Virus record (IMG/VR): IMGVR_UViG_3300033149_006617
Coordinates: 1 to 64,000 of that record
DNA from: a virus
DNA: 64,000 nt
Reading direction: 5' to 3' (one strand)
Every line of letters starts with the position of its first letter. Within the stretch, counting starts at the first letter, position 1. Both the position numbers and the translations under genes were made by a program. This document shows, piece by piece, positions 30,243 to 32,248 of this stretch. The notes beneath the pieces were generated by a model. It had not been told where the DNA came from and did no database searches. It saw only the letters and a program-made list of their open reading frames with translations.

Positions 30243-31850
30243 TCAAGCCCGAATAAAATCAGAAATCAAATTTGGTGTAGCCATATCAAATCCCACCACG
30301 TCCAACATACCAGCATCGTTAGGATCAGCAATTGAAAATCCTGTGCTGGTCATAGCTACCACAATTAATTTAGCAGGGATGCCTGTCTCTCGGCGATATT
30401 TCTGCAATGCTTGGCAAGGATGAATGTCACCTGCCCATGTTTCATTATCGGTATAAATGACAAACGCATCAATCTCCAAGCCATCCTTGAGCGCGGACAG
30501 CATGGGCAAGGCACAATCAGTGCCACCCCACGGTATATCCTCAATTTGACGAATAACATCATCAAGCCGTTGCCTGCTACTTATGCTAACCGGCACTAAG
30601 AGGGAATCCTCCCACCAATTAGAAGGCCCGCTAGCAAAAGCCGTCACAATAGAATTAAGCTCCACCCGTTGAGTAACCAATGCCATAGCAGCAGATGCCC
30701 CCCTGGGGGTTAGGTTAGGAATACCACTAACACCCGCAGCCCCCATAGAGCCTGATACATCCAATGCCAACATTATCCGTTTATTCGTAGGTTCTACATT
30801 ACCAAATGCCATGTAGAATGCTCCATCAAGAGCATCTACAATAGACGCTATAGGTGCCCATCTCAATTTCCCACGAGCTCCCTGACCGGATTTATATGTA
30901 GTCAATGCCGCCAGCACGCCGATAGGATGCACCCGTGCTCTACGGAGTGCCGCTTCATCAGATACCTTTTCAATTACCTTTGACGTTACACTACTCAGTG
31001 GTTTGAGTGCCCCATTTGCCGTCATGCGCCCCAAATTGCGGATGAGCGCGGTGAGTGGCATATTGGGCACTAATGCTTGCCAAACATCCGGAGAGTTAAT
31101 TACATCACCAGGTACCATCTCCCAAGTAACCCACGGATGGTTATTAATTATTCTTATTGTTTCCTTGGGATTTCGCGCTTTCTGGAGAGCCTCGAATACT
31201 TTGATAGTTTCGGGTAGGTCCTCAGTGCTCTCGTGCTGAGTAACCCAATGGAACAACGCATTTAATGCGGGATCAATTGCCTTCGGATGGGCTAATCTCA
31301 ACAAATCCCTATGAGTCCAGCCATATCTTTGGCGATATTTGACTATTTGGTAGGCAAGTCTCTCAACTTCCTTATCAGTATACCATCGGGCTACTGCCCG
31401 TCTAAGGCTCCGCCCCCAGCCACGAAACGACTCTACTGCATCTGCAAATTGAAAGATATGGGTTCCGATACGGCATACTTGTGGGAGCGCATCCAATGCC
31501 GCCTTCTTGGTCTTATCATCCCCCATACCTGCAGCCATCGCTAGCACAAAGATGGCAGCGTCATTTTTAGGTGCTCTGCCCTCCTCACTGATTTCAACGG
31601 TTCGATTAACTACTCGTTGCCCGTCTGCTTGTATGCACCGCAGGACCGCCTGGGCATTATCCTTGGTGAATTCATGCTCACCCACATAGTAAGTACCACC
31701 CTCACTTCCCAGAATCAAAAAGCGGTCAAGTCGGACCCAATCATCAACCTCAAATACATACCCACCCGCATCGTTTACTACCTGAGACTTACCTGGGATC
31801 GGCTCTGATTGTGGGGTCTTTTGGGTTTGGAAGTGCTTTGCGTACCGCAT
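30243..31850 (-). CDS. rsr: Ro60 / Rsr orthologue (TROVE-vWA RNA-binding protein)
   Basis: 535 residues, full length for the family. ATG 31850 is 8 nt from GGAG; ATG 31856 is too close. The N-terminal TROVE HEAT-repeat ring includes VDDWVRLDRFLILGSEGGTY, VLAMAAGMGDDKTKKAALD, RTHIFQFADA-like (GTHIFQFADAVESFRGWGR) and YRQRYGWTHRDLLRLAHP, all Ro60 hallmarks. The C-terminal vWA domain (from about residue 360) has the MIDAS: ALDVSGSMG, GGTDC, YTDNETW. Ro60 binds misfolded RNAs in its ring and Y RNAs outside, and in bacteria tethers PNPase. The gene is preceded by three Y-RNA-like RNAs. Confidence 0.92.
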   Translation of the reverse strand: MRYAKHFQTQKTPQSEPIPGKSQVVNDAGGYVFEVDDWVRLDRFLILGSEGGTYYVGEHEFTKDNAQAVLRCIQADGQRVVNRTVEISEEGRAPKNDAAIFVLAMAAGMGDDKTKKAALDALPQVCRIGTHIFQFADAVESFRGWGRSLRRAVARWYTDKEVERLAYQIVKYRQRYGWTHRDLLRLAHPKAIDPALNALFHWVTQHESTEDLPETIKVFEALQKARNPKETIRIINNHPWVTWEMVPGDVINSPDVWQALVPNMPLTALIRNLGRMTANGALKPLSSVTSKVIEKVSDEAALRRARVHPIGVLAALTTYKSGQGARGKLRWAPIASIVDALDGAFYMAFGNVEPTNKRIMLALDVSGSMGAAGVSGIPNLTPRGASAAMALVTQRVELNSIVTAFASGPSNWWEDSLLVPVSISSRQRLDDVIRQIEDIPWGGTDCALPMLSALKDGLEIDAFVIYTDNETWAGDIHPCQALQKYRRETGIPAKLIVVAMTSTGFSIADPNDAGMLDVVGFDMATPNLISDFIRA

Positions 31851-31873
31851 GTTCATCTCTCCTTAGATTTTAA

Positions 31874-31977
31874 TTCTGGGCAAGGGATGCGATGCGGAGT
31901 ATTGCCCCCATATTGGGCTAGCAAGGCATATACCTTGCAGGAATCGAACCTGATAACCACATCGCTCCGGCCCAGAA
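31874..31977 (-). ncRNA. Y-RNA-like RNA 1 with tRNA-mimic domain (YrlA type)
   Basis: A 104-nt RNA. Ends pair: 31971-31977 with 31874-31880 (7 bp). Next a conserved internal bulge (CCGGAG on the 5' side, ATCCCTTG on the 3' side), then a stem 31957-31965 with 31889-31897 (8 of 9 pairs), then TTATC. Inside it: T-arm with loop TTCGATT (31938-31952), a closed stem in the acceptor position (31922-31937), TA, and a GCCC/GGGC D-arm (31904-31918). T-arm, acceptor, D-arm order is circularly permuted relative to tRNA, as known for bacterial YrlA. It ends 11 nt before the Ro60 ribosome site. Confidence 0.8.
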
Positions 31978-31991
31978 AATTTAGTGCTTAA

Positions 31992-32118
31992 TGTCGGGCA
32001 AGGGATGTGGGGCGGAAATTCGCGCTCTACCATTGAGCTACTGGGGAGACCCCCAGACGGGACTCGAACCCGCAACCACGCCATTCCAAGTGGATAACCG
32101 CCCCACTCCGGCCCGACA
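31992..32118 (-). ncRNA. Y-RNA-like RNA 2 with tRNA-mimic domain (YrlA type)
   Basis: A 127-nt RNA with the same plan. Terminal stem 32112-32118 with 31992-31998 (7 bp); bulge CCGGAG opposite CATCCCTTG; second stem 32098-32105 with 32008-32015 (8 perfect bp); then TTATC. tRNA-like part: T-arm 32057-32073 with the classic loop TTCGAGT, a 6-bp stem closed by GTCT (32041-32056) replacing the acceptor ends, T8-A9-like TA, then GCTC-AATGGTA-GAGC (32024-32038), an almost perfect tRNA D-arm. There is no free acceptor or CCA, so it cannot be a normal tRNA. The sequence between D-arm and Y stem stands in for the anticodon arm. Confidence 0.85.
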
Positions 32119-32126
32119 AACATAGG

Positions 32127-32197
32127 GTTCTGGATAAGTAAACGGGTAGCCGAGTGCTCTTTGTCCTAAAGATAACGGCTCCCCTCCGACCCAGAAC
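32127..32197 (-). ncRNA. Minimal Y-RNA-like RNA 3 without tRNA mimic
   Basis: A 71-nt RNA, first in the transcript. Terminal stem 32191-32197 with 32127-32133 (7 bp), 5' bulge GTCGGAG and 3' CTTA-containing bulge as in the other two, second stem GGG-A-GCCG with CGGC-TA-CCC, then TTATC, and only a short hairpin (TCTTT/AAAGA) in place of the tRNA-like domain. Thus it holds only the presumed Ro60-binding part, like metazoan Y RNAs. On the plus strand it mimics a tRNA acceptor ending in ACCA by chance, but has no T-arm. Confidence 0.65.
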
Positions 32198-32219
32198 ACC
32201 AAAATTTCAATGCTATCGT

Positions 32220-32248
32220 AGTCTACACCAATTTGGGTGGTTTGTCAA
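32220..32248 (-). promoter_or_regulatory. Promoter of the Y RNA-Ro60-polymerase operon
   Basis: On the minus strand TTGACA (32248-32243), a 17-nt spacer and TAGACT (32225-32220). Transcription would start near 32213, about 16 nt before Y RNA 3. No other promoter was seen before the Ro60 gene, so the RNAs and the mRNA probably share a transcript that is processed. Confidence 0.7.

What the first reader, a model, noticed from the sequence alone, without database searches (positions are those of the whole stretch)
31992..32118. Circularly permuted tRNA mimic inside Y RNA 2
T-arm (loop TTCGAGT), a closed acceptor-like stem, TA, and a nearly perfect tRNA D-arm occur in that order, with the acceptor ends joined by a tetraloop and the anticodon side opening into the Y stem. 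Bacterial YrlA RNAs are known to mimic tRNA this way. The phage copy is unusually tRNA-like and may attract tRNA-modifying enzymes or RNase P.
Basis: partly seen in the sequence, partly recalled or inferred. Interest (0 to 1): 0.75.

Follow-up and report, generated by a model that had tools for sequence, protein, structure and literature searches.

The report
Phage Y RNA mimicking whole tRNA
A phage carries a gene for an RNA-binding ring protein, Ro60, next to a small partner RNA that seems to fold like a tRNA whose two ends were sewn together and whose chain was cut elsewhere; the kind is known, but this form also seems to show an anticodon loop.

Summary
Window 31992-32118 encodes a Y RNA (Rfam YrlA 54.9 bits, E 9e-12, below the 69-bit cut-off) just upstream of a phage Ro60 gene. 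T-arm, closed acceptor stem, UA and D-arm lie in that order. The permuted module recurs beside Ro60 in phages and bacteria (76 nonredundant examples). Its tRNA tertiary fold is supported by covariation of Levitt pair 15-48 (G-C 41, A-U 20, mixed 2; p=1.7e-14; five neighbouring positions show none).

Circular permutation and tRNA mimicry of bacterial Y RNAs are already published, phages included (recalled), and this copy is not unusually tRNA-like: 26 of 76 tie at the top score. In 38 of 76 modules a 7-nt-loop hairpin sits at the tRNA position. In 31 of those 38 the two outer stem pairs come from the bases after the D-arm, so the Y stem is inserted between positions 28 and 29. Y2 has all five pairs, but thermodynamic folding of Y2 alone does not favour them. 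Likely role: a Ro60 tether presenting an unchargeable tRNA shape to host tRNA-binding proteins. RNase P cleavage is untested.

The parts
31992..32118 (-). Y RNA 2: Y stem plus complete permuted tRNA-like module
   Evidence: Rfam YrlA 54.9 bits; fold z -4.2; model R1 places it at 31988-32123, 115.3 bits, but the site is in R1's training set
32094..32118 (-). Y stem, 5' strand, with GGCCGGAG and GGUUAU motifs
   Evidence: consensus Y stem with compensatory pairs in 42 aligned relatives
31992..32020 (-). Y stem, 3' strand (..CCGCCCCACAUCCCUUGCCCGACA)
32079..32093 (-). candidate anticodon hairpin: 29-31 CCA, loop 32-38 CUUGGAA (triplet UGG), 39-41 UGG, 42-43 CG
   Evidence: register and permutation tests over 76 modules; not favoured by the energy model for this RNA alone
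32074..32078 (-). variable loop 44-48 UGGUU; U48 can form the Levitt pair with A15
   Evidence: 15-48 covariation
32057..32073 (-). T-arm, loop UUCGAGU
32041..32056 (-). acceptor-like stem, 6 bp closed by tetraloop GUCU; no CCA
32021..32040 (-). positions 8-9 UA, D-arm GCUC-AAUGGUA-GAGC, 26 G, then 27-28 CG that can pair with 42-43
31871..31978 (-). Y RNA 1: reduced version (T-, acceptor- and D-like hairpins, no variable or anticodon region)
   Evidence: Rfam YrlA 22.3 bits; R1 50.2 bits at 31870-31982; fold z -5.3
32122..32204 (-). probable Y RNA 3 without tRNA module (GGGUCGGAG..GUUAUC motif, lower stem)
   Evidence: fold z -3.3; motif by eye; not found by R1 at E 0.01
30243..31856 (-). Ro60 gene (TROVE + vWA_Ro60), 537 aa
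   Evidence: Pfam E 2e-47 and 2.4e-60; PDB 1yvp E 1.4e-131, 2nvo Rsr E 5e-121
32220..32248 (-). sigma-70-like promoter (TTGACA-17-TAGACT) upstream of Y3-Y2-Y1-Ro60
   Evidence: consensus scan only; 2 sites found, 0.5 expected in the region

Best explanation
Y2 is a Y RNA of the phage's own Ro60 particle. Its long stem binds the phage Ro60 ring (inferred from homology). Its far end folds as a whole tRNA: T- and D-loops kiss, the 15-48 Levitt pair forms, the acceptor ends are joined by a tetraloop, and the chain is instead interrupted in the anticodon stem, where the Y stem enters between positions 28 and 29. The module cannot be aminoacylated because it has no free CCA end, so it offers a stable tRNA shape, probably with an anticodon-like tip, to host proteins that bind tRNA (PNPase or tRNA-modifying enzymes, by precedent) and tethers them to Ro60. 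Shown here: gene neighbourhood, homology, secondary structure, covariation. Inferred: Ro60 binding, transcription, host partner and benefit to the phage. Identity as a permuted tRNA-like Y RNA alone: about 0.95; the stated 0.6 is for the whole mechanism.
For: Ro60 next door on the same strand. YrlA match. The same module upstream of Ro60 in many phages, 0 on the opposite strand of any locus searched. RNAalifold on a plain MAFFT alignment of 42 relatives finds Y stem, T-arm, acceptor and D-arm, with 27 of 30 pairs changed on both sides in at least one sequence. Levitt 15-48: G-C 41, A-U 20, A-C 2, G-U 0, p=1.7e-14; positions 44-47 and 49 show nothing. Anticodon hairpin: 38 of 76, permutation mean 11.2, 0 of 5000 reach it; U33 in 33 of 38 although not used in selection. 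Outer pairs 27-43 and 28-42: 31 of 38 in the tRNA register against 1, 10 and 3 in shifted registers; 0 of 10000 permutations. YrlA binds PNPase and is a TruB and DusA substrate (PMC8394870, passages).
Against: YrlA gathering score not reached, and sub-threshold YrlA hits are frequent in the class of genomes searched, many of them to the tRNA core only. Nearest-neighbour energies do not favour the anticodon arm: in Y2 the full arm costs 6.2 kcal/mol against the MFE and its pairs have probability 0.004-0.014; over 38 modules the mean probability is 0.14 (inner) and 0.01 (outer). ARAGORN read on the circle of 76 modules, but also 909 of 1520 with positions 27-48 scrambled, so that test hardly speaks for the anticodon arm. 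No expression or binding data exist.
Confidence: 0.6

Rival explanations
1. Ordinary YrlA-type mimic without an anticodon arm: only T-, acceptor- and D-arms mimic tRNA, as published, and the 13-nt insertion relative to Rfam YrlA is a spacer hairpin of no set form.
For: Energy model prefers other hairpins in Y2 and most relatives. 38 of 76 modules lack the 7-nt hairpin. Body and triplet rarely fit one isotype: 6, 3 and 2 of 40 with three feature sets, p 0.007, 0.20, 0.44; real tRNAs 64-73%.
Against: Sharp register peak at loop 7 with variable loop 5 or 4 (26 and 15 of 76), U33, R37, A38, and the outer pairs in exact register.
Confidence: 0.22
2. Decoy: the phage Y RNAs soak up host enzymes that recognise tRNA by elbow and anticodon, such as anticodon nucleases of defence systems, and so protect real tRNAs.
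For: Anticodon-like loops are varied (26 different triplets in 38); acceptor is closed; phage tRNAs are reported to evade tRNA-targeting defence (PMC11555353, search listing only); Hughes et al. proposed that YrlA could inhibit an anticodon nuclease (PMC7790460, passages).
Against: Bacterial genome loci carry the same form (10 of 24 genome modules, some of which may be prophages). No test of binding. Salmonella YrlA was not cut by the nuclease.
Confidence: 0.2
3. Permuted tRNA gene: RNase P opens the acceptor loop and the product works as a two-piece tRNA.
For: CCA lies at positions 74-76 in 7 of 54 modules with room for it, against 10 of 378 at seven other offsets (Fisher p 0.002). Phages ScoobyDoobyDoo and Phabba show ACCA there.
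Against: Y2 has a 4-nt loop and no CCA; UUCG-type loops are commonest (9 of 54); triplet and body seldom agree; the Y stem interrupts the anticodon stem. CCA may be a relic of tandem tRNA genes.
Confidence: 0.03
4. Chance or tandem-tRNA artefact: the 3' half of one tRNA gene followed by the 5' half of the next looks permuted.
For: Several raw hits were such pairs and were dropped; many weak YrlA hits cover the core only.
Against: The window holds no tRNA gene; Y stem with compensatory changes and UUAUC motif flank the module; 0 of 400 simulations.
Confidence: 0.01

Closest known systems
YrlA (Rfam RF02553), tRNA-mimicking bacterial Y RNA; Chen et al. 2014 RNA 20:1715 and Wang et al. 2018 Structure 26:1635 (both recalled; not held)
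   Same: Beside Ro60; Y stem; order T-arm, closed acceptor, D-arm; conserved tRNA residues; phage copies are, as I recall the 2014 abstract, already included.
   Different: 54.9 bits, under the cut-off of 69; a 13-nt insertion relative to the Rfam consensus, which here is read as the anticodon hairpin. At least one bacterial YrlA-model locus shows a similar hairpin (L232, module 1711), so it is not phage-specific.
Deinococcus radiodurans Y RNA (RF01053) with Rsr
   Same: Y stem motifs and Ro60 partner (18.4 bits).
   Different: Far below its cut-off of 80.
Permuted tRNA genes of algae and archaea (recalled)
   Same: 3' half precedes 5' half; acceptor ends joined.
   Different: No CCA or processable intervening sequence in Y2; break lies in the anticodon stem with a Y stem inserted; no sign of a functional tRNA.
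tmRNA tRNA-like domain (recalled)
   Same: Partial tRNA mimic in an RNA of another job.
   Different: tmRNA is not permuted in this way and is charged with alanine.

Membership tests
Ro60-associated bacterial Y RNA | Encoded beside a Ro60 (TROVE + vWA) gene | tested here: met
Ro60-associated bacterial Y RNA | Long terminal stem with conserved motifs | tested here: met
Ro60-associated bacterial Y RNA | Binding to Ro60 | not testable with these tools
   needs co-purification
YrlA RF02553 | T-arm, closed acceptor, D-arm in permuted order | tested here: met
YrlA RF02553 | Curated gathering score of 69 bits | tested here: not met
   54.9 bits; also 0 YrlA hits in 16 loci that hold modules and 0 of 8 genomes over the cut-off. 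So Y2 is called YrlA-like, not a formal RF02553 member.
YrlA RF02553 | Pseudouridine and dihydrouridine by TruB and DusA | not testable with these tools
   reported for YrlA in PMC8394870 (passages)
Linear tRNA gene | Called as tRNA in the given order | tested here: not met
   ARAGORN 0 in the window; 0 of 76 modules as linear pieces
Permuted tRNA gene | tRNA when the ends are joined | tested here: inconclusive
   Y2 read as a circle is called tRNA-Pro(tgg), but 60% of circles with 27-48 scrambled are called too
Permuted tRNA gene | Discriminator and CCA, or room to add them after processing | tested here: not met
   Y2 loop is GUCU
Permuted tRNA gene | Cleavage by RNase P and rejoining of the ends | not testable with these tools
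   assay needed

The most novel reading that the evidence does not exclude
Phages and some bacteria carry Y RNAs that each hold a complete tRNA, with the Y stem threaded into the anticodon stem between positions 28 and 29 and a set of varied anticodon loops on show. They would act as unchargeable decoys or sensors for host enzymes that read the anticodon, anti-phage anticodon nucleases among them, and deliver these to the Ro60 ring.
Probability: 0.2. Interest if true: 0.8.

Novelty: new variant of a known kind. Interest (0 to 1): 0.5.

Why it matters
The role of Ro60 and Y RNAs in phages is open. If the mimic is a complete tRNA with an anticodon loop, it points to partners that read anticodons and makes the question testable in phages grown on laboratory hosts (Gordonia phage BearBQ, Mycobacterium smegmatis phages Sparky and ScoobyDoobyDoo). 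It also warns annotators: a tRNA finder calls some of these RNAs tRNA genes, and the Rfam model misses them at its cut-off.

Tried and rejected
Isotype capture (each Y RNA copied from one particular tRNA): agreement of triplet and body was 6, 3 and 2 of 40 in three feature sets (permutation p 0.007, 0.20, 0.44) against 65, 73 and 64% for samples of 150 real tRNAs, so the idea is not supported beyond a few Glu-like cases.

ARAGORN on circular modules as proof of an anticodon arm: given up after the scramble control.

An early reading that put the Y stem between 26 and 27, with all five anticodon pairs in the upstream hairpin, was dropped: 27-43 and 28-42 did not pair there but did with the bases after the D-arm. 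A count of a rival helix with loose registers was too permissive and is not used.

A first, too strict Y-motif filter kept 25 of 107 modules and was replaced by one that kept 90, then 76 after removal of modules over 80% alike. Five loci (L115, L125, L185, L188, L205) were kept although ARAGORN calls a linear tRNA there; I read L115, L125 and L205 around the module and saw Y stems. L098 was left out of the 42-sequence alignment by hand. RtcB: none in the record.

Full report
Setting. The window is 64,000 of 67,755 bases of an IMG/VR phage record with replication and tail genes. A Ro60 gene lies at 30243-31856(-): TROVE and vWA_Ro60 domains, and close to the solved Ro60 and Rsr proteins (1yvp E 1.4e-131, 2nvo E 5e-121). 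Upstream on the same strand lie three Y-like RNAs: Y1 (31871-31978), Y2 (31992-32118, the finding) and probable Y3 (32122-32204), preceded by a promoter-like site at 32248-32220. ARAGORN finds no tRNA gene in the window.

The observation. Reading the minus strand, Y2 holds T-arm GCGGG-UUCGAGU-CCCGU, hairpin CUGGGG-GUCU-CCCCAG, UA, and D-arm GCUC-AAUGGUA-GAGC, inside a long stem. Rfam YrlA matches the whole RNA with 54.9 bits (E 9.3e-12 in a 491-base search), under its gathering score of 69; Y1 matches with 22.3 bits. A descriptor with this score and UA was met 0 times in 400 simulated 64-kb strands, while matches of any score were met 225 times.

Relatives. Ro60 relatives were fetched from IMG/VR (48 loci; the best 80 of 369; the lists overlap), from GTDB genomes (best 80 of 320) and from named phages (10 loci; 344 phage records hold a match). 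A descriptor scan of the first sets and two named phages gave 107 distinct modules. After removal of modules without a UUA-type motif or overlapping linear tRNAs, 90 remained, and 76 after removal of those over 80% alike: window 2, viral 50, genome 24. No module was found on the strand opposite to Ro60. The scan misses modules with long acceptor loops, such as that of phage Grungle. A covariance model built from 42 of the Y RNAs finds full-length matches at E up to 0.001 in 49 of 60 further viral loci (counted by hand), 24 of them with 50 bits or more; some of the 60 had supplied training sequences, and weak matches of 25-40 bits may lack the tRNA part.

tRNA fold. RNAalifold on a plain MAFFT alignment of the 42 sequences predicts Y stem, T-arm, acceptor stem and D-arm; 27 of 30 pairs are kept through changes on both sides in at least one sequence. 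The acceptor forms 7 of 7 pairs in 52 of 76 modules and 6 of 7 in 15 (the scan itself asked for at least 4). The Levitt pair, a tertiary contact of tRNA between positions 15 and 48, covaries: among 68 modules with canonical 8-9 and D-arm, 63 could be scored: G-C 41, A-U 20, A-C 2, G-U 0 (Fisher p=1.7e-14). Position 15 shows no link to 44, 45, 46, 47 or 49. The sequences are related, so p is optimistic, but the controls share that relatedness.

Anticodon arm. For each module I counted closing hairpins of at least 3 pairs for all variable-loop lengths 1-12 and loop sizes 4-10. The peak is at variable loop 5 with loop 7 (26 of 76); variable loop 4 with loop 7 gives 15; other cells range from 1 to 19. 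Either of the two: 38 of 76, permutation mean 11.2, maximum 22, 0 of 5000. U33 occurs in 33 of 38 and A or G at 37 in 35 of 38, though neither was used for selection (background U 0.29). The two outer pairs of the anticodon stem, 27-43 and 28-42, are made with the two bases that follow position 26 on the D-arm strand: 31 of 38, against 1, 10 and 3 in shifted registers; permutation mean 13.1, maximum 23, 0 of 10000. Pair 28-42 shows C-G 11, U-A 11, G-C 9, U-G 3; pair 27-43 is mostly C-G (29 of 38) and so says little by itself. So the Y stem enters between positions 28 and 29. Y2 has all five pairs: 27-43 C-G, 28-42 G-C, 29-41 C-G, 30-40 C-G, 31-39 A-U, with loop CUUGGAA.

Against this. The energy model does not favour the arm. 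In Y2 the structure with the full anticodon stem has -59.4 kcal/mol against -65.6 for the MFE, which uses a CCAC/GUGG hairpin; pair probabilities are 0.004-0.014. Over 38 modules, 5 have an inner-pair probability above 0.5 and none an outer one; the D-arm itself exceeds 0.5 in only 22 of 38, so the model also undervalues an arm that covariation supports. Half of the modules lack the hairpin. ARAGORN on circles of 76 native, 0 of 76 linear, 0 of 1520 shuffled, but 909 of 1520 when only positions 27-48 are scrambled.

Not plain captured tRNAs. Triplet and body agree in isotype in 6, 3 and 2 of 40 modules for three feature sets (p 0.007, 0.20, 0.44), real tRNAs in 64-73%. CCA stands at 74-76 in 7 of 54 modules with room for it, against 10 of 378 at seven other offsets (p 0.002), and in phages ScoobyDoobyDoo and Phabba. 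This looks like a relic of tandem tRNA genes, whose junction has this very order; that origin is inference.

How unusual is Y2? On a 19-point tRNA-consensus score it shares the top with 25 others of 76; Y1 ranks 73rd. Its YrlA score (54.9) exceeds those of 8 Ro60-bearing genomes (best 33-50 bits). In 369 genomes of one class (that of a Thiotrichaceae genome) 2 exceed the YrlA cut-off and 147 have a match at E up to 0.001, many to the tRNA core only. A YrlA-model locus there also shows an anticodon-like hairpin (L232, loop CUGACAC, both outer pairs), so the form is not confined to phages.

What is known. From a review (passages): YrlA mimics the D, T and acceptor arms, is modified by TruB and DusA, and its tRNA-like domain binds PNPase. 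From Hughes et al. 2020 (passages): YrlA is not cut by the tRNA nuclease and might inhibit it. From a jumbo-phage survey (passages): some jumbo phages carry TROVE proteins. I recall from the abstract of Chen et al. 2014 that Y RNAs with a tRNA-like domain were reported near Ro60 in over 250 bacterial and phage species; that paper, Wang 2018 and Sim and Wolin 2018 could not be read. Eight text searches of the held library showed in their listings no paper on an anticodon hairpin in Y RNAs, but the library lacks the primary papers and I read only passages of four, so novelty of the arm is provisional.

Verdict. Real; a YrlA-like Y RNA of a phage Ro60 particle; permuted tRNA fold strongly supported; anticodon arm supported by comparison and not by energy; function inferred.

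Noticed in passing
L115:2579-2653, L116:2598-2672, L125:2790-2866, L185:125-197, L188:5087-5167, L205:779-849: ARAGORN calls these natural Y RNAs linear tRNA genes (Arg, Arg, Pro, Leu, Asp, Gly), using the Y stem as 5' half; an annotation trap (sequences of L115, L125, L205 read).
   Followed up: partly
L046:3318-3471, L021:3700-3846, window:31930-32047: The Rfam tRNA model matches across two neighbouring Y RNAs, taking the D half of one and the T half of the next (38.2, 31.3 and 18.5 bits).
   Followed up: no
loci L001-L213 except L049-L051: Ro60 genes often sit in tRNA arrays: 599 ARAGORN calls in 88 of 210 loci, some spurious and some loci overlapping.
   Followed up: no
L008:3723, L046:3291, L056:2848, L185:174, L192:2372, L214:2164, L220:2305: Acceptor loops begin ACCA right after the acceptor stem, as if a tRNA 3' end were built in.
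   Followed up: partly
window:31873-31979 and 31991-32120: The Rfam nematode sRNA ceN72-3_ceN74-2 matches Y2 (34.2 bits, cut-off 38) and Y1 (25.8), through the Y stem and the UUAUC motif.
   Followed up: no
window:31871-31978; L029:3584, L032:3613, L036:3746, L040:3722: A reduced class in which UUAUC runs straight into the T-arm, without variable or anticodon region.
   Followed up: no
window:27391-29766: DNA polymerase A with an N-terminal uracil-DNA glycosylase domain in one protein.
   Followed up: no
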